From contig NZ_CP076545.1 in assembly GCF_018889955.1 (NCBI RefSeq), positions 496,001 through 560,000 on the forward strand: a DNA stretch of 64,000 nucleotides, written 5' to 3'. This DNA comes from Collinsella sp. zg1085. GTDB lineage: Bacteria; Actinomycetota; Coriobacteriia; Coriobacteriales; Coriobacteriaceae. The position numbers and the translations under genes were made by a program. Positions within the stretch are counted from its first letter, which is position 1; the number at the start of each line of letters is the position of its first letter. The notes under the pieces are model-generated. The model was given only the letters and a program-made list of their open reading frames with translations, did no database searches and had not been told where the DNA came from. Positions 852-56,821 of this stretch are shown here, one piece after another.

Positions 852-1019
852 TTTTTGACAGAAATGGGCAATCTGACACTAAAGAACCCCCGAGGGTTGG
901 TAGTTATTTTATAAAACTGCAGGTAGATGAGTTGCATATAAAAACCCAATAGGGGGTTAATTACCAAATTGCCCGTTTTTGTCAGAATTTAGTGCCAGAT
1001 TGCCCATTTCTGTCAAAAG
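852..1019. repeat. Palindromic interspersed element, copy 1
   Basis: A ~168-bp element bounded by near-perfect inverted arms. The left arm (852-883) reads TTTTTGACAGAAATGGGCAA and onward; the right arm (988-1019) is its reverse complement apart from a couple of bases. Inside are an AACCC/GGGTT pair (887-899), a core hairpin TGCAG-GTAGATGAG-TTGCA (918-936), and GGGGGTT (952-958), which can also pair with AACCCCC (886-892). The right half carries two ATTGCCC motifs exactly 31 bp apart (968 and 999). It is ~98 percent identical to copy 2 at 2654-2821 over nearly 200 bp and shares core and geometry with copies at 19420 and 56653. It encodes no transposase. The type (MITE, structured RNA, binding site) is undetermined. 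Confidence 0.85.
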
Positions 1020-1252
1020 TACTGGCAGCAGTACCACCACATTGCCTGTTCTGCCAAAATCGATACATCAATCTATCACCGCATTGCCCGTTTCAACCAA
1101 CAGCATTAACAGCTGCCTTACCGGATTGCTCGTTTCAACCAACAGCATTAACAGCTGCCTCATCGGATTATCCGTTTCCACCAAAACAGGTAGCGGCCGT
1201 ATCACCCACATTGCCCGCCTCCACCAAAACTGCTGCCAGCCGCTTGCTTATG
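999..1252. repeat. Degenerate tandem array with 42-bp period following copy 1
   Basis: The motif ATTGCCC-GTTTC-(A/C)CCAA recurs with its first base at 999, 1041, 1083, 1125, 1167 and 1210, a spacing of 42, 42, 42, 42 and 43 bp. The first unit is the right arm of the palindromic element itself. The units at 1083 and 1125 are nearly identical; the others have drifted. Forty-two bp is four turns of B-DNA, so the motifs would lie on one helix face. One frame reads as 14-residue repeats, but the matching array behind copy 2 contains 40- and 41-bp steps that break any frame, so I treat this as a DNA-level repeat. Confidence 0.8.
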
Positions 1253-1377
1253 GCTTGGCTCAATTGGTTGCCACTTAGCAAGCACTGTTAAAAAACTTTG
1301 GTGACGGAATCAGGCTACCCATAAATGACTTGCCAATCGTTATTAGTCAAATTAGGGGTGCTACAAAAATATTCCAT

Positions 1378-1409
1378 AGTTGAGCTTGTGGAAAACTATA
1401 TGCTCAACT
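1378..1409. promoter_or_regulatory. Inverted repeat upstream of the putative nuclease gene
   Basis: AGTTGAGC (1378-1385) and GCTCAACT (1402-1409) form perfect 8-bp arms around a 16-nt AT-rich spacer, about 200 bp before the nuclease start. It could be an operator or a small hairpin. The rest of 1253-1613 is AT-rich, with a possible -10 (TATATG near 1560), and holds no gene. Confidence 0.35.
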
Positions 1410-1613
1410 TATGTAAAAAATAACAATTGTTAGATTTCTTTACTCAAAATATAGCCTCTGAACTGTAGTGGAGTTTTGGAGTAGCTACACGTGAGATTCA
1501 ACGAAGATGTTGAGAAGATTTAGGCTAGATTGTTGAGCAGTTTTCCACCGATGAACTGCGTATATGTAAAACTTTAGTTCGCTTTTTTCGTTCTAATTTG
1601 CGATGCTCTCTAC

Positions 1614-2597
1614 ATGAGACTTTGTATTTCACATCAAACGGCGCGCGCCTGGTATCGGCTGAAGGATTATCCGGCAGCCTCATTGTTAGTGCCCAATCAA
1701 GCTCAAGCGCTTCAAGACTTTAAGGTTGTCCATGACGATGTAGCACAAGCACAGAGAGTGCTTGCTGCATATGGATTGCCACAACAAGACTATATGCCCT
1801 TGCATATTTTAGTGCCGAGTACACAAGCTCGTTTGCGTACTCCTCATCTAAGTTGTCATGTATGTTCGCAGGCATTGCCGGCTCAAAGTCTGCAGGTTTT
1901 TGAACACCTAATGGTTCCAACGGCACCCTTGCTTGCGGTGCAGTCATCTCAAGATTTTAGTTTCCTTGAACTCGTTGAATATTTTTATGAACTGTGTGGA
2001 GCATACCATTTACCACTACAGCTTGAAGAACCTTTTTGCGAACGTATTCAGCTGACAAGCGTTGAAAATCTCACTGCATTTGCCCAGAGCTGTGTACATA
2101 AGATGGGACGTACAAAAACCTTATCTGCTCTGCGTTTTACACGTAACGGTGCACGTTCTCCCATGGAAACCGTGTGCGCGATGCTCGTTGGTTTATCTCG
2201 AAAACACGGAGGCCTAGGAGTCATTGATTTTGATTTGAATGCGCGGATTGAGGTGCCTAATCGTTTGCGCCATTTAACGCGTTCGCATGCTTTTTATGCC
2301 GACATCTTATTACGACAAGCAAAGCTCATCCTTGAGTATCAAGGTTTTAATCACGAGGAGTCGCAACGGGCAGTATCTGACGAAGAACGACGTAACACCT
2401 TGGCGGCGCTGGGCTATCGAGTAATTGCAATATGGAAGCACGCCTTATTTCAACCTCAAGACTTCCAGCGTTTGATGCTAACAATTGAGCGCGCTGCGGG
2501 TTTGCGAAAGGACCGCCACACGGATGAGTTTGTTGAAAAGCAAGCAGCGTTGCGCCGATTTTTGCTTCGTCGGATGTTAGACAAATCATCGAGGTGA
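1614..2597 (+). CDS. Putative DUF559/Vsr-like endonuclease-domain protein
   Basis: A 327-residue protein. Its C-terminal ~130 residues resemble the DUF559 (Vsr-like, PD-(D/E)xK) nuclease fold: SPMETVCAMLV, then YADILLRQAKLILEYQG and SDEERRNTLAALGYRVIAIW. The likely catalytic residues are Asp230, Glu241 and Gln243, with a following D..RR helix. The N-terminal ~190 residues are unrecognised; they hold a CHVC pair (near residue 80) but no clear zinc cluster. The ATG at 1614 lacks a strong ribosome binding site. The gene stands alone between two direct copies of a palindromic repeat, which suggests a cassette. A role in DNA repair, phage defence or mobility is possible but not shown. The fold call rests on motif pattern only. 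Confidence 0.6.
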   Translation: MRLCISHQTARAWYRLKDYPAASLLVPNQAQALQDFKVVHDDVAQAQRVLAAYGLPQQDYMPLHILVPSTQARLRTPHLSCHVCSQALPAQSLQVFEHLMVPTAPLLAVQSSQDFSFLELVEYFYELCGAYHLPLQLEEPFCERIQLTSVENLTAFAQSCVHKMGRTKTLSALRFTRNGARSPMETVCAMLVGLSRKHGGLGVIDFDLNARIEVPNRLRHLTRSHAFYADILLRQAKLILEYQGFNHEESQRAVSDEERRNTLAALGYRVIAIWKHALFQPQDFQRLMLTIERAAGLRKDRHTDEFVEKQAALRRFLLRRMLDKSSR

Positions 2598-2653
2598 CAA
2601 GCTCCATAGACCTAACGTTAATGTGCGTCATTCATAGCTTTGTGCTCTACAAG

Positions 2654-2821
2654 TGCTTTTTGACAGAAATGGGCAATCTGACACTAAAGAACCCCCGAGG
2701 GTTGGTAGTTATTTTATAAAACTGCAGGTAGATGAGTTGCATATAAAAACCCAATAGGGGGTTAATTACCACATTGCCCGTTTTTGTCAGAATTTAGTGT
2801 CAGATTGCCCATTTCTGTCAA
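2654..2821. repeat. Palindromic interspersed element, copy 2
   Basis: Almost identical to copy 1, including arms, core (GCAGGTAGATGAG at 2724-2736) and the paired ATTGCCC motifs at 2773 and 2804, again 31 bp apart. The right arm is an even better reverse complement of the left (one mismatch in about 31). Together with copy 1 it forms a direct repeat ~1.8 kb apart that brackets the DUF559-like gene. It lies about 260 bp before the DAHP synthase start. Confidence 0.85.
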
Positions 2822-2950
2822 AAGTACTGGCAGCAGTACCACCACATTGTCTGTTCTGCCAATACACCAGCAGCAATACAACCACATTGCCTGTTCTGCC
2901 AAAATCACTAACAGCCGCATCACCAAATTACTCATTTCAGTCAAAACAGG
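2804..2950. repeat. Degenerate array following copy 2
   Basis: ATTG/ATTA motifs start at 2804, 2846, 2886 and 2927, spaced 42, 40 and 41 bp. The first ~45 bp match copy 1 and then diverge. The indels show that this array is not maintained as coding sequence. Confidence 0.6.
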
Positions 2951-3013
2951 TAACGGCTCTACCACCCCTCGCATCCGCGTCATGTAACAATACAAATACC
3001 GTGGCCTATGTTC

Positions 3014-3041
3014 TTGCACATACCCAAGCGCGCTGTAATAA
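3014..3041 (+). promoter_or_regulatory. Candidate sigma-70 promoter for DAHP synthase
   Basis: TTGCAC (3014-3019) and TAATAA (3036-3041) are separated by 16 bp, placing transcription about 35 nt before the start codon. It is the best -35/-10 pair between the repeat array and the gene. Confidence 0.45.
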
Positions 3042-3082
3042 TGGCGCGCATATCACGTCGAGAGTCCGCAGGAGGAGAACGT

Positions 3083-4120
3083 ATGAGCATGGATTTCAAG
3101 CGTCGCTTGCCTATACCAAAAGAGATTCGCGAAGAATTACCGCTGTCATCTGATGCAACAGCGCGGAAGACGCAGTTTGATGCCGAGGTTGCCGCTATTC
3201 TCACAGGGACTGATACCAAACGGCGCCTGTTGATTATGGGTCCTTGTTCGGCTGACCGCGAAGACTCTGTTCTTGCGTATATGGAAAAGCTCGCTGACCT
3301 GCGTGACCGTGTCGTAGACACCTTTGTTATCATTCCGCGTGTATATACCAACAAACCCCGCACAAAAGGAACGGGCTATAAGGGCCTCTTGCACAACCCT
3401 AACCCAGAGGCTGCTCCCGATTTGCTTGAGGGCGTGCGTGCTATTCGCCGTATGCATCTGCGCGTGGTAGAAGAAACCGGTATGTTTACTGCAGATGAAA
3501 TGCTCTATCCAAGCAACTATCAGTATCTCATCGATTTGTTGAGCTACATTGCCGTGGGTGCGCGTTCGGTTGAAAACCAGGAGCATCGATTGGTGGCATC
3601 GGGCGTACCGTGTCCTGTTGGCATGAAAAACCCAACCGGCGGCTCAACAGCGGTGATGCTCAATTCAATTCTTGCGGCTCAAGCTCCTCAGACCTTCTTG
3701 TTTCGCAACTGGGAGGTTGAGACATCGGGCAATCCTTTAGCCCACGCGGTGCTTAGGGGTTATACCGGCTCAGATGGAGCAAATTATCCCAACTATCATT
3801 ACGAGTATCTGGAGCGTTTGGCTGAGGCCTATGATGCTCAGACCTATGCTCACCCCGCGGCTATTATCGATTGCAATCACGATAATTCAGGCAAACGCCC
3901 TATGGAGCAGCTGCGTATTTGCCATGAGGTCGTGGATTCATGCAATAGAAACGACGCTATTGCGGCATTGGTGCGCGGCTTTATGATTGAGTCTTATTTA
4001 GAGGACGGCAATCAGGCAGTTGACGGGGGAGTTTTTGGTAAGTCAATTACCGATGCGTGCCTTGGGTGGGAAAAGACCGAGCGGCTGGTTCTTGAGATGG
4101 CAGACTGCATGCATCAATAG
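3083..4120 (+). CDS. aroF: 3-deoxy-7-phosphoheptulonate (DAHP) synthase, class I
   Basis: Condenses phosphoenolpyruvate with erythrose 4-phosphate, the first step of the shikimate pathway. The 345-residue length and the motifs MGPCSADRED (from residue 52), PRVYTNKPRT, GARSVENQEHR, PVGMKNPTGG and DCNHDNSGKRP are those of the AroF/AroG/AroH class I family; the last two contain metal and substrate ligands. I chose the ATG at 3083 because a perfect AGGAGGAG lies 6-8 bases upstream, whereas the upstream in-frame starts lack one. No other aromatic pathway gene is adjacent. Which amino acid inhibits it cannot be predicted safely; the symbol could equally be aroG or aroH. Confidence 0.93.
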   Translation: MSMDFKRRLPIPKEIREELPLSSDATARKTQFDAEVAAILTGTDTKRRLLIMGPCSADREDSVLAYMEKLADLRDRVVDTFVIIPRVYTNKPRTKGTGYKGLLHNPNPEAAPDLLEGVRAIRRMHLRVVEETGMFTADEMLYPSNYQYLIDLLSYIAVGARSVENQEHRLVASGVPCPVGMKNPTGGSTAVMLNSILAAQAPQTFLFRNWEVETSGNPLAHAVLRGYTGSDGANYPNYHYEYLERLAEAYDAQTYAHPAAIIDCNHDNSGKRPMEQLRICHEVVDSCNRNDAIAALVRGFMIESYLEDGNQAVDGGVFGKSITDACLGWEKTERLVLEMADCMHQ

Positions 4121-4296
4121 AGAGCCTGTATCATTTGAGCGTCTGCACTAATAGAGCGGCTGCACCAATACCGCACCCGTTCCAACACAGCGCTTGTGCC
4201 AACATAGTGCTGTGCGCACGGCGCTAGATATAGAGGCGATCTGGCTCAAAGCACCGCTCATCCAAGTTCTCTTCAAACCCCAGATAATTCAAAAAG

Positions 4297-4330
4297 AAAC
4301 CCCTATCGAAAAACTCGATAGGGGTTTGTT
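4297..4330. terminator. Bidirectional intrinsic terminator between aroF and the nitroreductase gene
   Basis: A perfect 13-bp stem (AAACCCCTATCGA at 4297-4309, its complement at 4315-4327) closes a 5-nt loop. T-rich sequence follows on the plus side and AAAAAG precedes it, so it can end both convergent transcripts. Confidence 0.85.
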
Positions 4331-4337
4331 TGGAGCT

Positions 4338-4404
4338 TGCGTTTTAATACAAACAGGCCCTGCGCTTTAATACAGACAGGCCTTACGTCAATACAGACAA
4401 GCCT
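4338..4404. repeat. Three tandem ~23-bp repeats in the 3' end of the nitroreductase transcript
   Basis: Units at 4338-4360, 4361-4383 and 4384-4404 share TAATACA(A/G)ACAGGCC and begin TGCG/TACG. The array ends at the stop codon of the nitroreductase gene and abuts the terminator on the other side. Confidence 0.7.
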
Positions 4405-5000
4405 TAGCGCTCAATGCGAATACGCTCGTCTGCGCTCATGCGTTCCTGAGTACCGGGCGCCCCCTCAATGCCGCCAAAGACGAGCTGCGCCTTGAGCTGC
4501 CAGTTAGCAGGCACACTCCAGCGCTCACGAACCGCATCATCAATGATGGGGTTATAATGTTGCAGGTTAGCACCTACTCCCACCTCGGCAAGACTATTCC
4601 AAACATTGACATGAGCAATGCCTTGTCCGTGCGCTGCAAAAGTATCAAAGGCATCAGCATAGGTAGCAAACTGTTCTTTCATGTTGCTTACTACCTCATC
4701 ATCTTCAAAGAACAACACAGTGCCATATGCTGCTGCAAACATATTCATTTTCTGCTGCGTTGGCTCAAAGTTTTCGGCAGGAACAATTGCTTGTAAGGTC
4801 TTGGTAACGATGTCATTCCAGAGTGTTTTGTGCTGCTCGCCCAAAAGAATAAGAGCGTGCGCACTTTGCATATTAAAGGCAGATGGGCTTGCAACAAGCG
4901 CATCCTTAATGCGCGTGAGCACTTCATCTTCACTCACCGGCAGTTGGTGGTTAAGCGCATATACAGAGCGGCGCTTATTAATAATGTCTTGATAGGTCAT
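4404..5000 (-). CDS. Nitroreductase-family FMN oxidoreductase
   Basis: A 198-residue protein of the short nitroreductase type. It begins with TYQDIINKRRSVYALN, the FMN phosphate-binding RRSxR-like start, followed by SPSAFNMQSAHALIL (Ser/Asn FMN contacts) and ends with QLVFGGIEGAPG, the conserved C-terminal strand. Such enzymes use NAD(P)H to reduce nitro compounds, quinones or, in fatty-acid-linked members, other electrophiles; the substrate is unknown. I chose ATG at 5000 over an upstream TTG because GGAGG sits 6 nt in front of it. It is a single gene convergent with aroF, sharing its terminator. Confidence 0.85.
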   Translation of the reverse strand: MTYQDIINKRRSVYALNHQLPVSEDEVLTRIKDALVASPSAFNMQSAHALILLGEQHKTLWNDIVTKTLQAIVPAENFEPTQQKMNMFAAAYGTVLFFEDDEVVSNMKEQFATYADAFDTFAAHGQGIAHVNVWNSLAEVGVGANLQHYNPIIDDAVRERWSVPANWQLKAQLVFGGIEGAPGTQERMSADERIRIER

Positions 5001-5302
5001 AACATCCTCCAAAGTATGTATATAAAGGTGTCTAACATTGCTTTGTTATACCCATTTTTGCAAAAATAGATTATTAGATAGTCCGTTAATTAAATGATGT
5101 TGCTTTGAGTTGTTTGTTAGTCTATGGGCGCATGAGTACCCAGCATACGGGAGTACGTGCATCAAGCCTGCCAGTTTTGCATGAAGCTTTTGGGTGCCAA
5201 GAGCTGAGTTTGCCATACGTGATGCATAGAGTTATTAGATTGGGTATATGTCAACTACACAGAAACGACCACACACATGGTCATGATGAGTTAGGAATGC
5301 AT

Positions 5303-5542
5303 ATGGCTACATCGTATGAACTCTATTACAAGCCCACCTGCCCATGGTGCCAGAAGGTACTGGGCGTTATGGATGAGCTTGGCATTGAGCTGCCGTTAAA
5401 AGACATTGTTGCTGACCCAGCAAATGCCGAGAAACTGATTGAGGTGGGCGGCAAACGCCAGGTTCCGTGCCTCTTCATTGATGGCAAGCCTCTGTATGAG
5501 TCGGGGGATATTATTGCGTATCTTAAGCAGCAGTTTGCCTAG
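5303..5542 (+). CDS. Glutaredoxin-family thiol-disulfide protein
   Basis: A 79-residue thioredoxin-fold protein with the active site CPWC (residues 13-16), the cis-proline strand RQVPCLFIDGKPLYES and a C-terminal helix: essentially one complete glutaredoxin or GST N-terminal domain. It probably reduces protein or low-molecular-weight disulfides in the cytoplasm. The start at 5303 has TTAGGA about 6-10 nt upstream; an ATG two codons earlier is possible. An upstream extension of the frame to 5105 looks non-coding. The additional Cys in VPCLFI is unusual for classical glutaredoxins but common in GST-N-like forms. Confidence 0.85.
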   Translation: MATSYELYYKPTCPWCQKVLGVMDELGIELPLKDIVADPANAEKLIEVGGKRQVPCLFIDGKPLYESGDIIAYLKQQFA

Positions 5543-5775
5543 CTTGCACAATTTAAGTGCGCTATCTTGTTTTTCTTTGAAAGATTGCGCATAATACAGG
5601 CAATTCGCGACGGAAAACACAGATGAAACGAACCGCATCCGTTGCCTAAAGCAAGCTTGTTACCCTGTATGTATTTGGTGCCGCTTGCCTGCTATTGTCA
5701 TCGGTTTCCTGCGAATGATGGGAAGAAGACACGACTTGGTCGTGTTTGGTTGTTCGCGCGAAATGGAGTCCTAAG

Positions 5776-6951
5776 ATGGCATTGCAGTCTCGTCGGCACC
5801 CAGCTATTGCGGCTGGCATTGCAACTGGTATCGGATTGATTGTCCCTGCGGCGCTTTATGCAGCGACCATTCCCTTTGATGATTTGCACCAAGTGGTTGT
5901 GACGAGTGCTGCGCCCTTTGCGGCGGGTTCTTTGCTAGGTGCGGGAGTATGTGCCTTGTCGGTACACGCGCTCTTGAAGTCTGCCAACGAGGTGCCTGAG
6001 CTTACTGAGTTTTCTGAGTCAGCCAAGTTTGCTCAGAACTCAAAGTCTCAGGAAGTTGCGCACAGTGCCGCATCAAGCTCACAAGATTTTGCGCAAGAAG
6101 TACGTGGCACACGCTTTGCGCGTGCTGATGAAGATAAAAGCGCTGCGGAGCGTCTTGGCATGACAGGCGTGTTTTCGCGTCGTGCTGCAAAGGATATCCC
6201 CATTATTACTCGGGCCGCCGATGCCTTATCTGAGGCTGAGGCATGGGCAGAAATTGATAAGCTGCTTGATGAAAACTCTCCTATAAGCTGCGATGCTGAG
6301 CGCTCAAAAGATATTTATCAAATTGCGTTTGAAGAATTAGCAAAGGGAGCGTCGGCTGAGCGTCAATATGAGGAATCCGAGAAAACAGCAGCTCTGCGTT
6401 CGTTGGCGCAACAATCAAGTACTGCACATGCGGCTGCGCAGCCGTCTACCGTTGCTTCCGTGCGGCTGCCTGTGGCTGCTGCCGTACAAGCGTCCACAGC
6501 TGCAAGCGCACAGTCATCTGTAACTGCCGTGTCGCAGGCAACATCTACTGAGGTGTCCGTTGCGGTGGCTGATTATAGTGGACGCGAATCACTGTGGGCA
6601 TCTGCCTTAGAAATTATGAGCGAGGATACTGAGGGTGCATTGTCACCACAGGTAGCACATCATGAGGCAGAGCAAGAGGACACGCGCATTGAGGCAGTTG
6701 CACGTGCGCCGCGGGCTTCGCTTGATGTTATGCCGCTGACCCCTGAGCGTGCAGAGGCTATGGCAGAAGGCGAGCGTCAAACGCAGATGCATGGGCATAT
6801 CAATGAGATTTTGGGCGAGGAACTCTCAAAGGTTTCGTCGCACAGTATGCGTCGTACCAGCAAAGAGTTCTTGCGTGTTATTCAAGGTCGTACAGCATCT
6901 ATGCCAAAACTTGACGTAGCTGCACGCGAGGCTCGGGCGCGTGAGGCATAG
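5776..6951 (+). CDS. Membrane-anchored low-complexity protein of unknown function
   Basis: A 391-residue protein. Two hydrophobic segments (about residues 10-32 and 42-68) form an N-terminal hairpin anchor. The rest is hydrophilic, rich in Ala, Ser and Glu, with a repetitive Ala/Val/Ser/Gln stretch (about residues 210-270) that looks like a disordered linker. A more ordered C-terminal block contains HGHINEILGEELSKVSSHS and ends in RAREA. I recognise no family. GGAG at 5765-5768 supports the ATG at 5776. The VanZ-like gene follows 37 bp later in the same direction, so the two may be cotranscribed and act at the cell envelope. Confidence 0.7.
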   Translation: MALQSRRHPAIAAGIATGIGLIVPAALYAATIPFDDLHQVVVTSAAPFAAGSLLGAGVCALSVHALLKSANEVPELTEFSESAKFAQNSKSQEVAHSAASSSQDFAQEVRGTRFARADEDKSAAERLGMTGVFSRRAAKDIPIITRAADALSEAEAWAEIDKLLDENSPISCDAERSKDIYQIAFEELAKGASAERQYEESEKTAALRSLAQQSSTAHAAAQPSTVASVRLPVAAAVQASTAASAQSSVTAVSQATSTEVSVAVADYSGRESLWASALEIMSEDTEGALSPQVAHHEAEQEDTRIEAVARAPRASLDVMPLTPERAEAMAEGERQTQMHGHINEILGEELSKVSSHSMRRTSKEFLRVIQGRTASMPKLDVAAREARAREA

Positions 6952-6988
6952 CCCATCTACAAGTGGGCATGAAGAAAACTGGTTTCCT

Positions 6989-7465: not shown

Positions 7466-7612
7466 TGTAGAGAGGCGTATGATACAGAGATTCGAGCCGT
7501 ATGCACGGTAGTTTTGCCTGACTGTTGAGCGACTGTGAATTTATTAGAATTGGTACTTGCGTATGAGGGCGGCATTGTGCATAATGGTCAAGCGCTTTGC
7601 GCGAGGATATAC

Positions 7613-7690
7613 GGTGGGTGTAGTTCAGTTGGCTAGAGCGACGGGTTGTGGTCCCGTAGGTCGAGGGTTCGAGTCCCTTTACCCACCCCA
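7613..7690 (+). tRNA. tRNA-His (GTG)
   Basis: A full cloverleaf can be drawn: acceptor GTGGGTG pairing TACCCAC, anticodon stem CGGGT/ACCCG-like around the loop with anticodon GTG, T arm with GGTTCGAG, and an encoded CCA end. The extra G at 7613, just before the acceptor stem, is the G-1 typical of tRNA-His. Confidence 0.95.
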
Positions 7691-7713
7691 CTTTTCTCGG
7701 CAAGCAGATATAA

Positions 7714-7790: not shown

Positions 7791-7803
7791 TCTAACAGTA
7801 GTT

Positions 7804-10853: not shown

Positions 10854-10905
10854 TGCTTTGGTCGGAAACCAAAGCACCCTTTGCGCTCTGGTCGGTAACC
10901 AGAGC
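10854..10905 (+). promoter_or_regulatory. Twin-hairpin leader of rpmE
   Basis: Two adjacent hairpins have nearly identical tops. One is TGCTTTGGT-CGGAA-ACCAAAGCA (10854-10876), the other GCTCTGGT-CGGTA-ACCAGAGC (10885-10905). They end 22 nt before the rpmE start and just ahead of its ribosome binding site. The stems differ in sequence but keep pairing and the CGG(A/T)A loop. This fits a ribosomal-protein leader on which L31 could act, although I cannot confirm a match to a catalogued leader family. Confidence 0.65.
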
Positions 10906-10927
10906 ATGAGACAAGAGGAGCCCTGCC

Positions 10928-19419: not shown

Positions 19420-19584
19420 CTTTGGCAAAAATGACGAAAAAGTACTCTCTATAACCCAGCGGGTTAGTATTTATTTAACAAAGTCGCAGGTAGATGAGCT
19501 GCGAGTAAAGCTACAGTTGTCGCTTTATGTCAAATTAGTCAAAAATGACAGATTTTTGCGTCAAATTTGTCATTTTTGCCAAAG
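19420..19584. repeat. Palindromic interspersed element, diverged copy 3
   Basis: Same plan as the other copies but with different arms: CTTTGGCAAAAATGAC (19420-19435) against its exact complement at 19569-19584. An AACCC-AGC-GGGTT hairpin (19453-19465) precedes the core TCGCAG-GTAGATGAG-CTGCGA (19484-19504), whose loop is identical to that of the other copies while the stem is changed and fully paired. Two TCAAATT motifs in the right half are 31 bp apart (19530 and 19561). The rest of 19174-19667 holds nothing I can identify. Confidence 0.75.
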
Positions 19585-50700: not shown

Positions 50701-51489
50701 GTTGTTATCCCAGTATTTCCGGGTAATAACTGCGAATTTGATTCAGCGCGTGCCTTTGAAGCTGCAGGCGCTGCCGCTGATATTTTTGTTATCAACAATC
50801 TGAGTCCGCACTCAGTTGCAGAAAGTACGCATGAGCTCGCAAAAAAGATTCGTGAAAGTCAGATAGTCATGATTCCTGGCGGCTTTTCGGGTGGCGATGA
50901 GCCTGATGGCTCGGCTAAGTTTATTACGGCATTTTTCCGTGCACCTGAGGTTACCGAAGCAGTCCGTGACTTGCTGCAGGCGCGCGATGGTCTCATGCTG
51001 GGAATCTGCAACGGTTTTCAGGCCTTGGTAAAACTTGGCTTGGTGCCCTATGGCGATATTGTTGAAGCGCAGCCTGATGCTCCAACCTTGACTTTCAATA
51101 CTATCGGGCGCCATCAGAGCAAACTGGTGCGCGTCCGTGTTGCAAGTGATTTGTCTCCTTGGATTTTGCCGGGCACTACGGGGGATATGTATTCGGTTGC
51201 TATTTCGCATGGCGAAGGTCGTTTTGTGTCTAGTGAGGCTGAGCTTGCCAAGCTGGTTGCACAGGCTCAAGTAGTTACGCAATACGTTGATGAAGACGGT
51301 TTTCCCAGCATGGATTTAGCTGCTAACCCTAACGGGTCCATGCTTGCGATTGAAGGTATCACGAGCCCAGATGGTCGCGTGCTTGGTAAGATGGGTCATA
51401 CAGAGCGTGCGGGTGAGCATCTCTATCGCAATATTCCGTGGGTTTGTGACATGCCGCTCTTTGAAAACGGCGTACGCTACTTTGCTTAA
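47740..51489 (+). CDS. purL: Phosphoribosylformylglycinamidine synthase, single long chain
   Basis: A 1249-residue enzyme for purine step 4: FGAR plus glutamine plus ATP gives FGAM. The N-terminal PurS-like part is followed by the PurL core (TYWSDHCRHTTFGTE, FKNETHNHPTEIEPFGGAATCIGGAIRD, GGRTGRDGIGGATGSS) and a C-terminal glutamine amidotransferase (IPVFPGNNCEFDSARAF, MIPGGFSGGDEPDGSAKF, nucleophile in MLGICNGFQALVKLG, ISHGEGRFV). It looks like the clostridial/bifidobacterial clade rather than the proteobacterial one. GAAGGGCAGG precedes the ATG. purH is 7.6 kb further on, so the pathway genes are dispersed. Confidence 0.95.
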   Translation: MVSRVYVEKKPSFDVEAQQLFVELRETVGVQQLKSLRMLNRYDVEGIDHELFERCVSTVFSEPQVDVTYSNFTPSPDETAFAVEFLPGQFDQRADSASECIQLISQSERPLVRSARVYVLTGALTSDDLHAIQSYVINPVEARLASDTLPQTLQQELIAPGSVEVLSGFCELDAKGRAALIVERGLAMDEADLAFSQAYFQSEKRDPTITELRVIDTYWSDHCRHTTFGTELTNISISDELVAQAFTRYLELRRELKREHKPVCLMDMGTIGAKYLRHSGQLHNLDESEEINACTVKCTVDVNGVDEDWLFLFKNETHNHPTEIEPFGGAATCIGGAIRDPLSGRSYVYQAMRVTGAADPRVPVSQTLPGKLAQRSIVTTAAAGYASYGNQIGLATGQVSELYHPGYVAKRMEVGAVVGAAPTRHVRRERPQPGDKIILLGGRTGRDGIGGATGSSKTQNQESVSTAGAEVQKGNAPVERKLQRLFRREDACRLIKRCNDFGAGGVSVAVGELAEGLYIDLDQVPKKYAGLDGTELAISESQERMAVAVESADVEAFLALAYEENLEATVIAEVTHEPRVRMAWNGDVIVDLSREFLSSNGAPKTQEVLVEATDEAYPQIPGATAPSLAEGFAELVSDINVCSNKGLSERFDSTIGAATVLMPHGGAQQLTPPQAMVACLPVNGTTTTVSGMAWGFNPYLMEYKQYTGAYLSVVESIARLVATGFNHSHAYLSFQEYFERLRTDARRWGKPVAAVLGALMAQLDMGVGAIGGKDSMSGSFEDLDVPPTLISFAVALGKAQQIVSPEFKGAENRVVVLEPSYDAEGLLPDAKSQIAVFETLEQAIAQGQVLAASTPGYGGIAEAVFKMSLGNRYGLQMKGAACELQKRLFAHRYGSFVVELAPGAVLSEREGVHVWNLGETCSSYELQVANEHIDLAQLQELWERGLEAIFPYRDHTAQSKPELLQMRAEEQTYTRKIYGGPRFARPRVVIPVFPGNNCEFDSARAFEAAGAAADIFVINNLSPHSVAESTHELAKKIRESQIVMIPGGFSGGDEPDGSAKFITAFFRAPEVTEAVRDLLQARDGLMLGICNGFQALVKLGLVPYGDIVEAQPDAPTLTFNTIGRHQSKLVRVRVASDLSPWILPGTTGDMYSVAISHGEGRFVSSEAELAKLVAQAQVVTQYVDEDGFPSMDLAANPNGSMLAIEGITSPDGRVLGKMGHTERAGEHLYRNIPWVCDMPLFENGVRYFA

Positions 51490-51536
51490 AGCTTACGAGC
51501 CACGTGACTTTTTTGAGTTGAGAGTGTCAGGGCGCT

Positions 51537-52379
51537 TTACGAGAAAAAGCGCTCGACAATCTCTACAAGCGCACCGTCACGGTTGCTGCTCTTGAGTACA
51601 ACATCGGCTTGAGCTTTAAGCTCAGAACTTGCGTTAGCAACGCAAAGTCCTAACCCGGCTGCCTTTACCATTTCAAGGTCGTTGCGGGCATCGCCTACGG
51701 CAATAATCTGCTCAGGGGGAATGCCCACAAGCTGTGAGAAGCTCCTAAGCCCGCTTCCTTTATTGACACCTTGTGGCATAAACTCAAGGTAGCGTCCTGA
51801 TGAGTAGGTGATGTCACAAGGCTCGTCTACCAGTTCTGGCTTAAGTGATGCGCCCAAATCAAGTAGCTCAGGGTAGTGCTCACTCATAACACAAAACTTA
51901 ACTACCTCTGTATAGCCATAGTGTTCTAGTACAGCTTCAAGGCTTGGAAAGTCTTGTTTGTGCGCCAGTGCAACGCCGCTGAGGCCTACCAAATAGGCAC
52001 GTTCTTCTGCAGGCGGGTCAAGAACGACAATATAACCGTCAGGAAAACAAACGTGAATACAAAGATTTGCCTCCACACCAATGCGATAGAGCTTGTGCGC
52101 AAGCGCAGAATCGAGTGCGCAGGAGTGAAGCGGCTGATTATTGCCTACGCGGTTAATGAATCCGCCGTTATATGAGATGACATAGCTATCTTGAAGAAGT
52201 GCTTGATGAGCGTCGCCAAAGTTCGACAGAATTGAAGAATACGGTCTGCCTGAGCTGGGCACAAAAAGAACGCCCTGGTTGTGGAGATATTCAAGCGCTT
52301 GTAGGTTTGCAGGTGGAATTTGGTGCCGCTCATCTAAAAAGGTCTCATCCATATCAGACATAACAACACGATACTCCAT
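51537..52379 (-). CDS. Cof-type HAD-superfamily phosphatase
   Basis: A 280-residue HAD-IIB protein: motif I VMSDMDETFLDE, motif II VPSSGRPYSSI and motif IV VGDARNDLEMVKAAG, with a large C2B cap between. It is probably a sugar-phosphate or cofactor-phosphate phosphatase; the substrate is not predictable. GAGAGAGG lies upstream of the ATG at 52379; the longer frame to 52436 lacks support. It is convergent with purL, with only 48 bp between the stops. Confidence 0.9.
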   Translation of the reverse strand: MEYRVVMSDMDETFLDERHQIPPANLQALEYLHNQGVLFVPSSGRPYSSILSNFGDAHQALLQDSYVISYNGGFINRVGNNQPLHSCALDSALAHKLYRIGVEANLCIHVCFPDGYIVVLDPPAEERAYLVGLSGVALAHKQDFPSLEAVLEHYGYTEVVKFCVMSEHYPELLDLGASLKPELVDEPCDITYSSGRYLEFMPQGVNKGSGLRSFSQLVGIPPEQIIAVGDARNDLEMVKAAGLGLCVANASSELKAQADVVLKSSNRDGALVEIVERFFS

Positions 52380-52442
52380 CTTATCAACCTCTCTCAAAAC
52401 CGTGTAGATACGCTTTATAGGTGGCGAAATAGCCATAATTAT

Positions 52443-52467
52443 GCAGGCTTGTTCGTGCCAAGCCTGC
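52443..52467 (-). terminator. Hairpin between trpS and the HAD gene
   Basis: GCAGGCTTG and CAAGCCTGC pair exactly around a 7-nt loop, but no good T-run follows on the minus strand, so it may be a weak terminator or a stabilising stem. Confidence 0.45.
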
Positions 52468-52492
52468 GCTTAGTTCTTTAATACCCTTTTAG

Positions 52493-53542
52493 TTAATAAA
52501 CCATACCCATGGCTTCACGAACTTCAGCAAGGGTTTCTTCGGCAAGAGCGGCTGCGCGCCGATTCCCTTCGTGGAGTACATCTTTGACAAAATCAAGGTC
52601 TTGCTCAATGGTGTGTCGACGTTCGCGAATAGGAGCAAAGTAGTCGTTCACTGCTTGCGTAACATATGCTTTGAGCTGTCCTGAGCCACCCATGCCAACC
52701 TCAGCTGCAATGTCTTGCTCAGTACGACCCGTGCAAATTGCTGCTGTTGACAAAAGACCCGAAACGCCTGGGCGCTGCTCGGGGTCAAAGCTAATCATGC
52801 GCTCGCCATCGGTTTGGCTCTTTTTTATGCGCTTCGCCGTTTCTTCTTCTGTCATTGAGATATTGATGGCATTGCCATAGCTTTTTGACATCTTGCGTCC
52901 GTCAAGACCGGGGAGCAAGGGGGTTTCACTTAGAAGAGCGTCTACTTCAGGGAATACCTTGCCATAGCGGTTGTTAAATTTGCGGGCAATTAAGCGCGTG
53001 AGCTCGATATGAGGAAGCTGATCCTTGCCAACTGGCACTACATTGCCTTTGCAAAATAAAATATCGCAGGCCTGATGCACTGGATAGGTGAGTAAAAGCC
53101 CGGTCAACTCGTGGCCAGAGGCTTCCATTTCTGCTTTAACCGTAGGATTGCGCTGCAGCTCTGCTTCAGAGACCAGTGACAAGAAGGGCAGCATCAGCTG
53201 GTTTGCAGCAGGTACTGCCGAGTGGGCATAAATCATGGTTTTATTGGGGTCTATTCCACAGGCAAGATAGTCAATCACAAGGTTATAGACATTGTCTTGA
53301 ATGTGCTCAGTGGTGTCGCGGTCAGTAATAACCTGATAATCGGCAATAAGCACGTGCGTACGAATACCGGCATTTTGAAGTTCTACGCGCCCTTTTAAGG
53401 TGCCAAAGTAATGGCCAAGGTGCAAGCGGCCGGTGGGACGATCCCCGGTGAGCATGGTATAGGCCTCGGGGTGGAGATTCAAATCGGCACGAATTTCGTC
53501 GCTTCGTTTAAGAGCAGTTTCATAGCTACGTTCGTTTGACAT
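52493..53542 (-). CDS. trpS: Tryptophanyl-tRNA synthetase
   Basis: A 349-residue class Ic synthetase. The HIGH-like motif is GRLHLGHYFGTL and KMSKS is intact in GRKMSKSYGNAINIS. LLLTYPVHQACDILFCKGNVVPVGKDQLPHIELTR (contacts split around residues 150-185) gives the Trp-binding and dimer region. AAAGGAG precedes the ATG. No T-box-like leader is evident. Confidence 0.96.
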   Translation of the reverse strand: MSNERSYETALKRSDEIRADLNLHPEAYTMLTGDRPTGRLHLGHYFGTLKGRVELQNAGIRTHVLIADYQVITDRDTTEHIQDNVYNLVIDYLACGIDPNKTMIYAHSAVPAANQLMLPFLSLVSEAELQRNPTVKAEMEASGHELTGLLLTYPVHQACDILFCKGNVVPVGKDQLPHIELTRLIARKFNNRYGKVFPEVDALLSETPLLPGLDGRKMSKSYGNAINISMTEEETAKRIKKSQTDGERMISFDPEQRPGVSGLLSTAAICTGRTEQDIAAEVGMGGSGQLKAYVTQAVNDYFAPIRERRHTIEQDLDFVKDVLHEGNRRAAALAEETLAEVREAMGMVY

Positions 53543-53598
53543 ACAACTCCTTTATTTATAAAAACGAGCAGGTACACATATTAGGGCTTTGTTGCGGC

Positions 53599-54978
53599 TT
53601 ATGAGCGCGAGGGAGGTGAAGGGCTTTGAGGCGGCTTCTGAGCGCTACTGTGGCGTGCATCTGTTTTGCGCGCGTCAGCAGGCGCTTGTTCTGTGCACGT
53701 ATGCCTTTGTTGAGACTCGCGTTTGTGCGTGGCGAGTTTAAGAGCTTGTACTCGGCGCTTGTGCGCCATGCGTGAGACAGTTGTCTCGGGAATACACGCT
53801 TCATCGCGCGAAGCATCATCGCGGGCTTGTGGCGTTTTTGGATTGTAGTGATGAAGCAGCACCGGATCAAAGAGGTGAAGGCGCAGAGCAAAGGCTGCTG
53901 AAGATACAAGCAGTACGATAAAGATGAGAATACGCGGCATAACTTCAACTTGGTTAATAAGGGCAGCACCAATTGAAAGCAGGATAGTCCAAGCATAAAT
54001 AAGAAGCACCGCTTGTCGTTGGTCAAAGCCCTCCTGAATGAGGCGGTGGTGAATATGACCGGTGTCTGCTTGCCCAATGCTCATATGTGCGCGCTTGCGC
54101 CGAATAATGGCTGAGAAGGTATCGATGATAGGCACACCGGCAACAATAAGCGGCATAATTACACTGGTAAGAGCGGCAACACGCGATACGTTGAGCAGTG
54201 AGATTGACCCCAAAGCAAAGCCAAGCAGTAAGGCTCCTGAGTCACCTAAGAAAATGCTTGCTGGATGAAAGTTATAGTATAAAAAGCCCAAACAAGCTCC
54301 GATAAGAGCAATAGCAATAAGTGCAGCATCAGAGCGTCCAGCGAGAACCGAGAAAGAAAACATAGAGCAGCCTGCAATGGCTGATACGCCGGTGGCAAGA
54401 CCATCAAGGCCGTCTATGAGGTTGATGATATTGGTGTAGGCAACAAGATAGATAACGGTGAGTGGATAGGCAAAAAAACCAAGCGTAATTTCGGCGCGGT
54501 TGAGCGGGTTAACGATATTTTGAATAAGCAAGCCGCTTGCTGCTGCAAGGATTGCGGCAAGTATTTGTCCTGCCAGTTTTTGGCGCGGTGAGAGCTGTAT
54601 CACATCATCAACGGCGCCGGTTAACACCATAATCAAGAAGGCAAGAGCGAGCATGGGGTAGTTGATAGCCAGGCTTGGATGCGGCACAAGCGCAACTGCC
54701 CAGCCAAAGCTCGTGTGACCAAATACCTGCACGCCAACCGCTGCAGCAATGCCACAGAATACGGCAAGTCCGCCAAGACGTGGAATAGGCGTTTTATTGA
54801 TTCGACGCTTTGATGGGTAATCAACAGCATCAAGGGATATGGCAAGACGCTTTGCAAGCGGGGTAGTTATAAGGGTAACTACCATGCTTACCAGCAACAA
54901 TACAATATATGGAAACGCGATATGCACGCGCAGCACCACCGAAATGAGTCGAGAACAAGTTAGTACATTGTAGACCAT
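53599..54978 (-). CDS. Polyprenyl-phosphate GlcNAc-1-phosphate transferase (WecA/TagO-like, MraY superfamily)
   Basis: A ~459-residue membrane enzyme with ~10-11 hydrophobic segments. It links UDP-N-acetylhexosamine-1-phosphate to undecaprenyl phosphate, starting wall glycopolymer or teichoic-acid synthesis. Superfamily motifs are PIPRLGGLAVF, GAVDDVIQLSPRQKL (Asp-Asp), NLIDGLDGLATG, FLGDSGALLLGF and GHIHHRLIQEG (HIHH, the WecA/TagO-type loop). About 100 extra charged C-terminal residues (RDDASRDEAC... PPSRS) form a soluble tail. The start is uncertain: ATG 54978 is chosen, although the ribosome binding site is weak. Confidence 0.88.
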   Translation of the reverse strand: MVYNVLTCSRLISVVLRVHIAFPYIVLLLVSMVVTLITTPLAKRLAISLDAVDYPSKRRINKTPIPRLGGLAVFCGIAAAVGVQVFGHTSFGWAVALVPHPSLAINYPMLALAFLIMVLTGAVDDVIQLSPRQKLAGQILAAILAAASGLLIQNIVNPLNRAEITLGFFAYPLTVIYLVAYTNIINLIDGLDGLATGVSAIAGCSMFSFSVLAGRSDAALIAIALIGACLGFLYYNFHPASIFLGDSGALLLGFALGSISLLNVSRVAALTSVIMPLIVAGVPIIDTFSAIIRRKRAHMSIGQADTGHIHHRLIQEGFDQRQAVLLIYAWTILLSIGAALINQVEVMPRILIFIVLLVSSAAFALRLHLFDPVLLHHYNPKTPQARDDASRDEACIPETTVSRMAHKRRVQALKLATHKRESQQRHTCTEQAPADARKTDARHSSAQKPPQSPSPPSRS

Positions 54979-55100
54979 TGTGCACTCGTTGCTGGTATAC
55001 GGTAGGCATAGATGCATAAAAGTGACAGGCTCTCAGCTTATGTGTTAGCTCAGCTGCCTTTAACAAAACGCCGCTTCCCAGTTTCACGAAATGAACCCAC

Positions 55101-55235
55101 CTATACCAGGTGGGTGCCCTCATCGTCCTCTCCAGCGTCCTTAACAACGAAGGATACCTGTACCAGAAACGACTGTGTGGGCTCCCTCAAAAAATGCGAC
55201 GGTTCACCCAGTTGTTCCACCGGGAAGCGGTACAT
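55101..55235 (-). CDS. Possible small protein of 44 residues
   Basis: An ATG-to-TAG frame begins MYRFPVEQLGEPSHFLREP and ends EDDEGTHLV. The residue mix is protein-like (alternating hydrophobics, acidic tail), and it fills the gap before the WecA-like gene on the same strand, 122 bp upstream. There is no strong ribosome binding site (only AAAG), and I recognise no family. It could be a decayed piece of a longer gene. Confidence 0.35.
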   Translation of the reverse strand: MYRFPVEQLGEPSHFLREPTQSFLVQVSFVVKDAGEDDEGTHLV

Positions 55236-55439
55236 CTTTATAATAATGCTTGTTAATAGATAAACCAGTCTTGACTTTTTTCGCAGCTCAGCGGACGATG
55301 GAAGTGTATTTGTGTGTTATGCACCCTAATTGAGCCGTGCGATATTACCTTGATGTTGAAGGCAAGACATGAGAATAGGTTCGCGCTCTTGCGCGTATAG
55401 CTTGCTGGGAGACATTAAAGATGGAGAGCCAAACGCTGC

Positions 55440-55658
55440 TTAGGTATCAATTTCTATACGATCGCCGCGACGCATAAGCACAAGTTTGTATCCACATTCT
55501 TGTGCAATGGCATGCAGTGTAAGCGTTGTTGGATTCCAAGACCCACGATTTAAGCTTGAAGTAATGAAGTTACGATGTCGGCCAATGGCCTGCGAAACAT
55601 CCGACCTACTTCTGCCGGCTTGTTTCAACATGTGATTGAGCGCATCGATAGTATTCAT
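55440..55658 (-). CDS. Small helix-turn-helix protein (XRE-like)
   Basis: A 72-residue protein. TIDALNHMLKQAGRSRSDVSQAIGRHRNFITSSLNRG has the pattern of a lambda-repressor-type HTH; the C-terminal strand is YKLVLMRRGDRIEI. GGGAGGGGAG 3-12 nt before the ATG fixes the start. It stands alone beside an AT-rich intergenic stretch, as phage or plasmid control genes often do. Function unknown. Confidence 0.75.
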   Translation of the reverse strand: MNTIDALNHMLKQAGRSRSDVSQAIGRHRNFITSSLNRGSWNPTTLTLHAIAQECGYKLVLMRRGDRIEIDT

Positions 55659-55679
55659 AGGCTCCCCTCCCATGCACAA

Positions 55680-56166
55680 CTATTGTAGAGGGTCTAAAAT
55701 AGCATATCTCGTAAGCTATATGTTACTAAATTTGTAAAGTATATTTGAATCGATTCAGAGCACTGTAAAATACCTATGCTTACATATAAGTTTAATACCT
55801 ATATTATTTGAAATTATGTATGTAAAAGCAATAGTATTCAAATTTACTGAATACCGTTTTATATGCTAAATTACTTGTACTACCTTGATTTTGTATTATT
55901 TAGCATGTTTTATTCTATTTTTGAATAGAAAAGCTTGTTTTGATAAATAAAACTGTCTCACATTTCAAGTTGAGTTGTAAATGTATACTAAAGTTGTTCA
56001 TAGAGTGTTACTATTTATAGATATGATGTGTGTAAAAATGAATGAACTGTGGATAAAAGCACCAGTGTATAACCAGTGTATATGAGCTTTTATGCGTTAA
56101 CTAGTGTGAAGCATATCGTATGGATTGACAGAATATATGAGCAGGGTACAATGTGAAGCCGTCTTT
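55680..56166. other. AT-rich intergenic region with DnaA-box-like sites
   Basis: Roughly 55690-56040 is far more AT-rich than the rest of the window and holds no gene. At its right edge TGTGGATAA (56048-56056) is a perfect DnaA box in reverse orientation. It is followed by AGTGTATAA (56064-56072) and AGTGTATAT, one and two mismatches away, inside a direct repeat of CCAGTGTATA. Confidence 0.5.
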
Positions 56167-56242
56167 GGGGACGTAGCTCAGCTGGGAGAGCGCTGCCGTC
56201 GCATGGCAGAGGCCGAGGGTTCGATTCCCTTCGTCTCCACCA
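56167..56242 (+). tRNA. tRNA-Ala (CGC)
   Basis: GGGGACG pairs CGTCTCC. Anticodon stem CTGCC/GGCAG encloses GTCGCAT with anticodon CGC (codon GCG). T arm GGTTCGATTCC; ACCA is encoded. Confidence 0.95.
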
Positions 56243-56303
56243 GAATAGCAAGCGTCGAACTCTTCATTGGGTGTAATGAGTTCACGTTGTTGATAGAGTT
56301 TGA

Positions 56304-56333
56304 GGGTAGCCATAAGGCTACCCTTTCTCTTTT
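56304..56333 (+). terminator. Terminator after tRNA-Ala
   Basis: GGGTAGCC-ATAA-GGCTACCC followed by TTTCTCTTTT. Confidence 0.85.
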
Positions 56334-56391
56334 AGTATAGGTTTGGGTTAAGGTGTAGCTACAACTGGCTCTTTAGGGTGTGTCGCCAGAC

Positions 56392-56508
56392 ATGCGGATT
56401 CAGTTCATGTTTGATGAGTTAGTTTGCCAAACACCTTGGGTGCATGTCGTTCTTGAAGGACTTAGTTGGGATTTTGAAGGTGGATTAAGAAACTCCCCTG
56501 ATGTATAG
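56392..56508 (+). pseudogene. Possible gene remnant of 38 codons
   Basis: The frame MRIQFMFDELVCQTPWVHVV... WDFEGGLRNSPDV looks protein-like but has no ribosome binding site and no recognisable family. It may be the tail of a decayed gene. Apart from this and the repeat copy at 56653, the region 56243-57222 shows no gene. Confidence 0.3.
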
Positions 56509-56652
56509 CGTGCTTGTCTCTCACAAGATAGATGAAGTCATTGTGTCCATTAAGACATTGGATAGCTTGAAACGCTGTGGGAATCAGATTTGTGTCCCGG
56601 TTTTCTATCTATGCTCTGAGCTCTGCGCTTGGCAATGGTGCTGGTCCAAGCT

Positions 56653-56821
56653 CTTTTGACAGAAACGGGCAATTTGGCAGTGTAGAACCCCCGTGAGTTA
56701 TTCGTTGTTTTGTAAACCTGCAGGTAGATGAGTTGTAGTTTTTCTAACTATAGGGGGTTTATTGCCAGATTGCCCATTTTTGTCAGGTTTTACTGCCAGA
56801 TTGCCCATTTCTGTCAAAAAG
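56653..56821. repeat. Palindromic interspersed element, copy 4
   Basis: Arms CTTTTGACAG...GGGCAAT and ATTGCCC...CTGTCAAAAAG are inverted. The core is CTGCAG-GTAGATGAG-TTGTAG (56719-56739). Two ATTGCCC motifs start at 56769 and 56800, exactly 31 bp apart, and 49 bp separates core and first motif, as in copies 1 and 2. Sequence outside the motifs differs at many positions from copies 1 and 2, so the matching distances are informative. No trailing 42-bp array follows. Confidence 0.8.

What the first reader, a model, noticed from the sequence alone, without database searches (positions are those of the whole stretch)
852..56821. Four-member family of palindromic intergenic elements with an invariant loop and fixed geometry
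Elements at 852, 2654, 19420 and 56653 share a loop GTAGATGAG inside a small stem. The stem sequence changes but pairing is kept: TGCAG/TTGCA, TCGCAG/CTGCGA, CTGCAG/TTGTAG. The distance from core to first right-arm motif is 49 bp in copies 1, 2 and 4 (48 in copy 3). The two right-arm motifs are 31 bp apart in all four, and the left motif ends 47 bp before the core in copies 1, 2 and 4. Covariation plus rigid spacing points to a functional folded RNA or ssDNA, or a multi-site protein target. I know of no named family with this plan.
Basis: partly seen in the sequence, partly recalled or inferred. Interest (0 to 1): 0.8.

Follow-up and report, generated by a model that had tools for sequence, protein, structure and literature searches.

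The report
Nuclease-linked family of mobile DNA palindromes
The four repeats belong to a large family of apparently mobile DNA palindromes in one order of bacteria, in which sequence classes are tied to copies of a fast-changing nuclease gene, as in the known REP/RAYT repeats but with an unrelated enzyme.

Summary
The repeats are real, but not a four-member family. Copies 1, 2 and 4 (class A) and copy 3 (class B) belong to at least 59 intergenic palindromes in this 1.72 Mb genome (30 A, 29 B). The claimed core-stem covariation fails on 57 distinct copies; the arms look like degenerate protein sites, not RNA pairs. No Rfam family accounts for them.

New point: copies 1 and 2 bracket a DUF559-type (Vsr-like) nuclease gene at 1614-2597. 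Relatives occur in 64 of 65 family genomes. A long-armed palindrome lies on at least one side of 38 of 43 such genes, against 3 of 40 control stretches; on both sides in 10 of 43. Where both sides carry long arms, the class is the same in 9 of 12 loci, against 2 of 132 mismatched pairs.

Dispersed copies share arms with a nuclease locus of the same genome in four cases. Elements and a cassette are present or absent at orthologous sites. Nuclease and arms mostly change faster than their neighbours.

Best reading: solo copies of a REP/RAYT-like unit built on an unrelated nuclease. Linkage is well supported; mobilisation by the nuclease is inferred.

The parts
853..1018 (+). Class A palindromic element, copy 1 (left arm 853-883, right arm 988-1018, loop core GTAGATGAG at 923-931)
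   Evidence: one of 30 class A copies
1041..1242 (+). Array of five extra half-sites of the A arm motif (ATTGCCCGTTTC..CCAA) at 1041, 1083, 1125, 1167, 1210: 42-43 bp period, between copy 1 and the nuclease gene
   Evidence: one off-register weak match at 1192 not counted
1614..2597 (+). DUF559 / PD-(D/E)XK (Vsr-like) nuclease gene, 327 aa, bracketed by copies 1 and 2
   Evidence: Pfam DUF559 E 1.5e-6, above the family cut-off; invariant SPxE, D230, E241, H247 in 11 aligned homologues; profile hits 3hrl (E 6e-4) and 3r3p (E 0.027)
2658..2823 (+). Class A palindromic element, copy 2 (direct repeat of copy 1; 98% identical over 215 nt)
2886..2959 (+). Further A half-sites to the right of copy 2 (2886, 2927)
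19420..19584 (+). Class B palindromic element, copy 3 (arms CTTTGGCAAAAATGAC / GTCATTTTTGCCAAAG; core at 19490-19498)
   Evidence: one of 29 class B copies
56654..56819 (+). Class A palindromic element, copy 4 (core at 56724-56732)

Best explanation
The repeats are solo (non-autonomous) copies of a mobile palindromic element. The autonomous form is [palindrome]-[DUF559/Vsr-like PD-(D/E)XK nuclease gene]-[palindrome of the same class], and the window holds one such unit at 853-2823. Shown: the class-specific arms are inverted copies of a degenerate motif around an inner part, often with a CAGGTAGA-type core; most nuclease genes of this family that were examined have such a palindrome on at least one side; where both sides have long arms they are usually of one class; solo copies of a class occur elsewhere in the same genome as its nuclease locus (four cases); a whole cassette and single elements are present or absent at orthologous sites; at most compared loci nuclease and arms diverge faster than their neighbours. 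Inferred: the nuclease recognises the arms of its own class and drives their copying or movement, much as RAYT transposases are thought to do for REP repeats, and the core is a part common to many classes that the process, or a host factor, needs.
For: At least 59 A/B copies in the genome, 58 of 59 outside ORFs of 150 aa or more, while such ORFs cover 52% of the fetched bases. All four nuclease homologues found in this genome lie near elements or core-like motifs: 497614 between two A copies, 1368511 next to B, 207790 about 320 bp from B, 350297 near a smaller palindrome seen by eye. Palindromes scoring 16 or more lie within about 800 bp on at least one side of 38 of 43 nuclease genes against 3 of 40 control stretches (Fisher p=1e-14); at score 14 it is 39 v 8, at score 18 it is 33 v 2. 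Same class on both sides in 9 of 12 loci against 2 of 132 mismatched pairs (p=2e-10). Solo copies share arms with a nuclease locus of the same genome: own A, own B, G031 (21-22 nt exact), C. aerofaciens. Empty cassette site in 4 genomes against 15 filled. One intergenic site has 0, 1 or 2 elements in 13 genomes with clear anchors: gaps of 5-6, 264-266, 505-506 bp. Fast evolution at most compared loci: e.g. four species with one flank about 90% identical and the nuclease gene 65-71% in DNA, arms mostly different. Related cores recur in palindrome loops of two other families (GCAGGTAGA, CCAGGTCG, CCAGATGA).
Against: No target-site duplication at the arm borders in 30 A and 28 of 29 B copies (observed equals shuffled), so no insertion mechanism is shown. 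Controls were random stretches, not matched for intergenic length; over whole 4-kb stretches 5 of 20 controls also hold a palindrome of score 16 or more (20 of 20 nuclease loci; Mann-Whitney p=7e-5), and one control, L283, holds a solo element. Loci are not all independent: several are one locus in different species. Palindromes of score 16 on both sides were found in only 10 of 43 loci; five of 43 lack one on either side, and L234, outside that set, had none. The CATATGAACATGCG hairpin is the same at a locus whose nucleases are about 48% identical, so co-change is not strict and some hairpins may be terminators. At L378/L384 the nuclease (85.5% protein) is no more diverged than the flanks (82% DNA). 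Pairs with at least 80% protein identity all share arms (115 of 115), but all of them compare one orthologous locus in different species. Several compact classes lack the core; the core pattern was written after seeing the loops. No biochemical evidence; the fold prediction failed (mean pLDDT 35).
Confidence: 0.6

Rival explanations
1. MITEs mobilised by a DDE transposase of the IS256/IS1249 type; the nuclease genes are passengers or independent cargo that happen to use the same ends.
For: Arms look like terminal inverted repeats. In 8 of 15 IS1249/IS256-type loci examined a GCAGGTARA core stands 18-19 nt after an end-type motif (GGACARAAnGTGTGT and close variants) upstream of the transposase. 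A broken IS1249 copy lies directly next to an A element in this genome. Single elements are present or absent at orthologous sites.
Against: That IS1249 copy has different ends. No transposase with A or B arms turned up, but only the IS1249 family was searched in the own genome. A and B arms were not found in the 64 other family genomes at E 0.001. It does not explain same-class palindromes on both sides of DUF559 genes. No target-site duplications at the arm borders.
Confidence: 0.2
2. The palindromes are operators: the nuclease-family protein is a DNA-binding autoregulator, and the dispersed copies are its regulon or chromosome-organising sites.
For: Degenerate, independently varying half-sites and 42-bp half-site arrays next to the gene; intergenic location; weak AbiEi matches in PADLOC (best E 0.005, 2 of 11 proteins for the better model).
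Against: Catalytic-type residues are invariant in 11 homologues. Class switching of both arms at an orthologous site and three discrete occupancy states look like element turnover rather than operator drift. A conserved core inside the loop is not needed for an operator.
Confidence: 0.1
3. Transcribed structured RNA: a terminator, regulatory RNA or RNA antitoxin paired with a nuclease toxin.
For: Long stems fold well (A consensus -72 kcal/mol); some cores read as AAAACCGCAGG..CCTGCGGTTTT; class A arms show more GU than AC mismatches (34 v 11); type III toxin-antitoxin systems also pair repeats with a nuclease (recalled).
Against: Core covariation fails and outer-stem pairing barely exceeds shuffles; class B shows no GU excess (0 v 9); no Rfam family; dozens of dispersed copies.
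Confidence: 0.08

Closest known systems
REP repeats with REP-associated tyrosine transposases (RAYTs / TnpA-REP)
   Same: Dispersed intergenic palindromes in many copies; a gene flanked by palindromes, often two of one class; class-specific palindromes with a small motif shared between classes; mostly fast evolution of gene and repeat; cognate repeats dispersed in the same genome (RAYT features from the abstract and passages of PMC2817692).
   Different: The protein is a DUF559/Vsr-like PD-(D/E)XK nuclease, with no match to a tyrosine transposase family. The window palindromes are about 165 bp with an internal core, not short palindromes with a 5' GT(A/G)G head. The two flanking copies can be direct repeats, as in the window and L202; two same-class palindromes were seen at a minority of loci.
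MITEs / IS1249-type insertion sequences (IS256 group)
   Same: Long inverted arms; a GCAGGTARA core also present upstream of IS1249 transposases.
   Different: No transposase with these arms found in a limited search; no target-site duplication.
Vsr-like homing endonucleases (3r3p, mobile intron protein)
   Same: Nuclease domain resembles DUF559/Vsr; weak profile hit to 3r3p and a better one to 3hrl, an endonuclease-like protein.
   Different: No intron or split target gene was noticed; the gene sits beside palindromes that occur in many copies.
BOX elements of pneumococcus and similar modular repeats (recalled, not tested)
   Same: Modular intergenic repeats.
   Different: I recall no linked nuclease class for BOX; sequences were not compared.

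Membership tests
REP/RAYT | Linked gene encodes an IS200/IS605-like tyrosine transposase | tested here: not met
   Pfam on 11 proteins: DUF559 in 10, MTES_1575 in 8, no tyrosine transposase family
REP/RAYT | Gene always flanked by two repeats of the same class, in inverted orientation | tested here: inconclusive
   Same class in 9 of 12 loci with long arms on both sides, but palindromes of score 16 stand on both sides of only 10 of 43 loci; window copies are direct, not inverted, repeats
REP/RAYT | Short palindrome directly after a 5' GT(A/G)G head | tested here: not met
   Arms mostly of about 18-49 nt around loops of about 10-120 nt; the core, where present, lies inside
REP/RAYT | Cognate repeats dispersed in the genome that holds the gene | tested here: met
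   Own A and B, G031, C. aerofaciens. Other classes were not searched genome-wide; three further element queries against the plasmid collection gave none or a partial match
REP/RAYT | Gene evolves much faster than its neighbours | tested here: met
   Four species of g3: right flank about 90%, nuclease 65-71% in DNA; L239/L249 flanks 90-94%, proteins 48.9%; L252/L261 and L255/L262 best flank 82-87%, proteins 56%. Exceptions: L378/L384 (no acceleration) and L249/L258 (flanks 79%, gene 69%)
MITE of an IS | Autonomous IS with the same terminal repeats and transposase | tested here: inconclusive
   Only IS1249-family transposases searched in the own genome; its ends differ
MITE of an IS | Target-site duplication | tested here: not met
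   30 A and 28 B copies, observed equals shuffled; a 24-bp direct repeat flanks one Collinsella insertion but may belong to a tandem unit
Rfam RNA family | Score above a curated threshold | tested here: not met
   Window at gathering threshold; 20 loci up to E 5, where only one sub-threshold hit to a miRNA model (25 bits, threshold 245) was seen to overlap an element
DUF559 / Vsr-like nucleases | PD-(D/E)XK-type domain signature | tested here: met
   DUF559 above cut-off for the window protein; invariant SPxE, D, E, H in 11 homologues. That these are the catalytic residues is recalled, not tested
DUF559 / Vsr-like nucleases | Nuclease activity | not testable with these tools
   needs biochemistry

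The most novel reading that the evidence does not exclude
A new kind of bacterial mobile element: palindromic units copied or moved by a Vsr-like PD-(D/E)XK nuclease without any DDE, tyrosine or serine recombinase, with nuclease specificity and palindrome arms diversifying together across an entire bacterial order.
Probability: 0.35. Interest if true: 0.9.

Novelty: new variant of a known kind. Interest (0 to 1): 0.77.

Why it matters
If the nuclease moves its palindromes, PD-(D/E)XK enzymes of the DUF559/Vsr type gain a role as drivers of repeat mobility, and a gene family present in several copies per genome (up to 11 scored) and labelled 'hypothetical protein' in the two named records seen here gets a function. 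It would be an independent counterpart of REP/RAYT and a set of natural nuclease-target pairs with many specificities, directly testable by binding and cleavage assays. Even without mobility, it explains a prominent kind of repeated intergenic DNA in Collinsella.

Tried and rejected
Folded RNA: core-stem and arm pairing tested on 57 distinct copies; core covariation failed, arms showed a small excess only. Rfam searched twice. Collinsella-1 RNA was considered from memory; the paper was seen in a listing only and Rfam did not report it.

Spread by exact pattern: a scan of genome contigs gave 14 hits in unrelated taxa that look like chance; the tool says records near the window's genome may be left out.

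IS1249 as source: its ends differ and lie beside, not within, the element, but the shared core is unexplained.

Target-site duplications: none at arm borders.

Nuclease in mobile replicons: no match in phages; two Collinsella aerofaciens records in plasmids, one of 899,693 bases and so probably chromosomal, the other a 29,994-base plasmid with a partial match; none in viral contigs. The plasmid copy (L413) had no exact inverted repeat longer than 10 nt within the stretch read.

AlphaFold from a single sequence was useless (pLDDT 35). No fold search was run.

Three further element queries against the plasmid collection gave no match (L198, L250) or a partial match (L217, 53% covered). A fourth (L173:1-180) hit an IS256-family transposase gene.
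Full report
Observation. The loop GTAGATGAG is present exactly four times at the stated places (0.34 expected), and the spacing is rigid. Copies 1 and 2 are 98% identical over 215 nt. Copies 1, 2 and 4 share arms (class A: TTTTGACAGAAAYGGGCAAT...); copy 3 has others (class B: CTTTGGCAAAAATGAC...). The window is part of a 1,720,218-base genome in one contig. A blastn of copy 1 finds 30 full class A copies there, and the 16-mer core pattern with up to 3 mismatches gives 112 places against 20 for the reversed control (its list is cut, and exact copies found later, such as 1402375, are missing from it). Sorted by arms, 30 A and 29 B copies were collected from 158,974 fetched bases; of the script's 32 A and 29 B rows, one A row was moved to B, one A row dropped as a double and one B row dropped. 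This is a lower bound, because only stretches around hits were read. 58 of 59 copies lie outside ORFs of at least 150 aa.

Covariation. With 57 distinct copies, paired cells at the core stem are close to the shuffled expectation for all pairs tested but the outermost (p=0.001 over A+B, 0.0004 within A, 0.61 within B). In the A arms the variable position of AAAYGGGC varies independently on the two sides (T-G 11, C-G 8, T-A 5, C-A 4). Over the outer stems there is a small excess of pairing over shuffles (784 v 778 for A, 37 of 2000 shuffles reaching it; 389 v 386 for B, 82 of 2000). GU exceeds AC in A (34 v 11) but not in B (0 v 9). This is mostly the pattern of repeated protein sites. Beside copy 1 lies an array of further half-sites at 1041, 1083, 1125, 1167 and 1210, a 42-43 bp period.

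Beyond this genome. A and B arms were not found in 64 other genomes of the family at E 0.001, but G031 had core-only matches with other arms. The core AAANCYGCAGGTARA occurs in 59 of 65 family genomes (own included), with 4 control matches in all. Reading the surroundings showed palindromes with many different arm classes around it; some hits are not in palindromes.

The nuclease. Between copies 1 and 2 lies a 327-aa gene (1614-2597) matching DUF559 above its cut-off, with SPxE, D230, E241 and H247 invariant in 11 aligned homologues and profile hits to 3hrl (E 6e-4) and the mobile intron protein 3r3p (E 0.027). The genome has four homologues: one between two A copies, one beside B, one, apparently broken, about 320 bp from B, and one beside a smaller palindrome with a core-like loop seen by eye. 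Homologues occur in 64 of 65 family genomes (E 1e-4) and in 107 of 197 sampled genomes of the class (E 1e-10), all but 2 of the 107 in the same order.

Linkage test. Nuclease loci: 4 own, 19 of 20 fetched from the own genus (L250 dropped as an orthologue) and 20 from two other families. Controls: 40 stretches of the same lengths, most of them 40-50 kb away (three stand in another genome of the genus). A palindrome of score 16 or more lies within about 800 bp on at least one side of 3/4, 19/19 and 16/20 nuclease genes, against 1/20 and 2/20 controls (38 of 43 v 3 of 40, p=1e-14). On both sides it is 10 of 43 v 0 of 40. Other thresholds: score 14, 39 v 8; score 18, 33 v 2; loops of 40-130 nt at score 16, 35 v 3. 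Over whole 4-kb stretches, 5 of the first 20 controls hold such a palindrome against 20 of 20 nuclease loci (Mann-Whitney p=7e-5); one control (L283) holds a solo element. With arms of 18 nt or more on both sides (12 loci) the class is the same in 9, against 2 of 132 mismatched pairs, which fit the orthologous pair L378/L384. A tenth locus, L254, shares 17 nt exactly but falls under the script's 18-nt window. A core pattern written after seeing the loops, CAG[AG]T[AC][AG], is in 10 of 22 loops of the other families (1.4 in shuffles) and in 8 of 20 of the genus (0.8). Caveats: controls were not matched for intergenic length, and some loci are one locus in different species.

Dispersed copies share arms with a nuclease locus of the same genome in four cases: own A, own B, G031 (solo L118 and nuclease locus L256, 21-22 nt exact) and C. 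aerofaciens TSDC17.2-1.1 (solo L415 with the arms of nuclease locus L251). The C. aerofaciens solo carries a near-standard core, GCAGGTACA, while its nuclease-side relative has a diverged loop.

Turnover. At one intergenic site, 13 genomes with clear anchors on both sides show gaps of 505-506 bp (two elements, 5 genomes), 264-266 bp (one, 6 genomes) or 5-6 bp (none, 2 genomes). I examined 22 of the 30 loci returned; a fourteenth genome, G014, fits the second state with a weak right anchor, and 8 were set aside for missing anchors. In the 12 aligned copies of element 1, three have TTACTACGAT arms and nine TTACGGGGCTG arms, switched on both sides together while the flanks stay put. Element 2 is flanked by an imperfect 24-bp direct repeat, which may be a target duplication or part of a tandem unit. 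For one nuclease cassette, the joined flanks match as one stretch in 4 genomes (empty) and as two pieces on one contig in 15 (filled: 14 with about 1.63 kb between, G028 with 3.1 kb); the other genomes match one flank, or the halves on two contigs, or nothing. The ancestral state is not known. No target-site duplication was seen at the borders of the own A and B copies.

Fast evolution. At orthologous loci the better-conserved flank is 82-95% identical (the other flank down to 67-72% in some). The nuclease gene is 65-71% identical in DNA among four species of g3 whose right flank is about 90%; proteins are 48.9% for L239/L249 and 56% for L252/L261 and L255/L262; the cassette of L217-type loci did not align with that of L259. 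The palindromes are mostly of other classes. Exceptions: L378/L384 (protein 85.5%, flanks 82%, same class), L249/L258 (gene 69%, flanks 79%), and the CATATGAACATGCG hairpin, the same in L239 and L249 although the proteins differ; it may be a terminator.

Interpretation. The layout resembles what Nunvar et al. report for REP/RAYT: gene flanked by repeats, co-evolution of gene and repeat, evolution faster than neighbours, abundance of cognate repeats (PMC2817692, abstract and passages). The enzyme is unrelated and the repeats are several times longer with an internal core, so this is not a RAYT system but may work like one. Mobilisation by the nuclease is inferred. The main rival is mobilisation by an IS256/IS1249-type transposase: a GCAGGTARA core stands 18-19 nt after an end-type motif in 8 of 15 such loci examined.

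Literature. I found nothing in print on this link. Searches: limited to an open-licence library and seen as listings. PMC3733652 on GTAG-tagged repeats does not hold words beginning Collinsella, Coriobacter, Eggerthella, Olsenella or Actinobacter (term search only), and passages of PMC8040213 mention palindromic candidates without these.

Noticed in passing
L071, L088-L092, L094, L096 (IS1249-family loci): In 8 of 15 IS1249/IS256-type loci examined a GCAGGTARA core stands 18-19 nt after an end-type motif (GGACARAAnGTGTGT and close variants), upstream of the transposase; L088 has the unit twice. Same core as in the palindromes, unexplained.
   Followed up: partly
L173:72 and 1507: In C. aerofaciens an IS256-type transposase ORF lies between two cores, and one element seems cut at its core, as if the palindrome were an IS target.
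   Followed up: no
G000:C1, about 418623-420193 (L051): A broken IS1249 copy sits directly against a class A element that has four right-arm repeats instead of two.
   Followed up: partly
L316-L330 site: Both arms of an orthologous element switch class together while flanks and core stay, suggesting gene conversion or replacement by another element.
   Followed up: partly
G000:C1 doublets such as 1542178-1542570 and 1603401-1603782: B and A elements occur as same-strand doublets, cores 195-368 bp apart, in 16 places, and two more as opposite-strand pairs (positions), often with conserved flanking sequence: a larger composite repeat.
   Followed up: no
window 10885-10920: L31-Coriobacteria ribosomal protein leader (Rfam RF03128, 39.1 bits), an ordinary known RNA.
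   Followed up: no
L200, L201, L207 and other tandem sites: Collinsella elements often lie 249-250 bp apart in tandem, as if the repeating unit were about 250 bp and larger than the palindrome.
   Followed up: no
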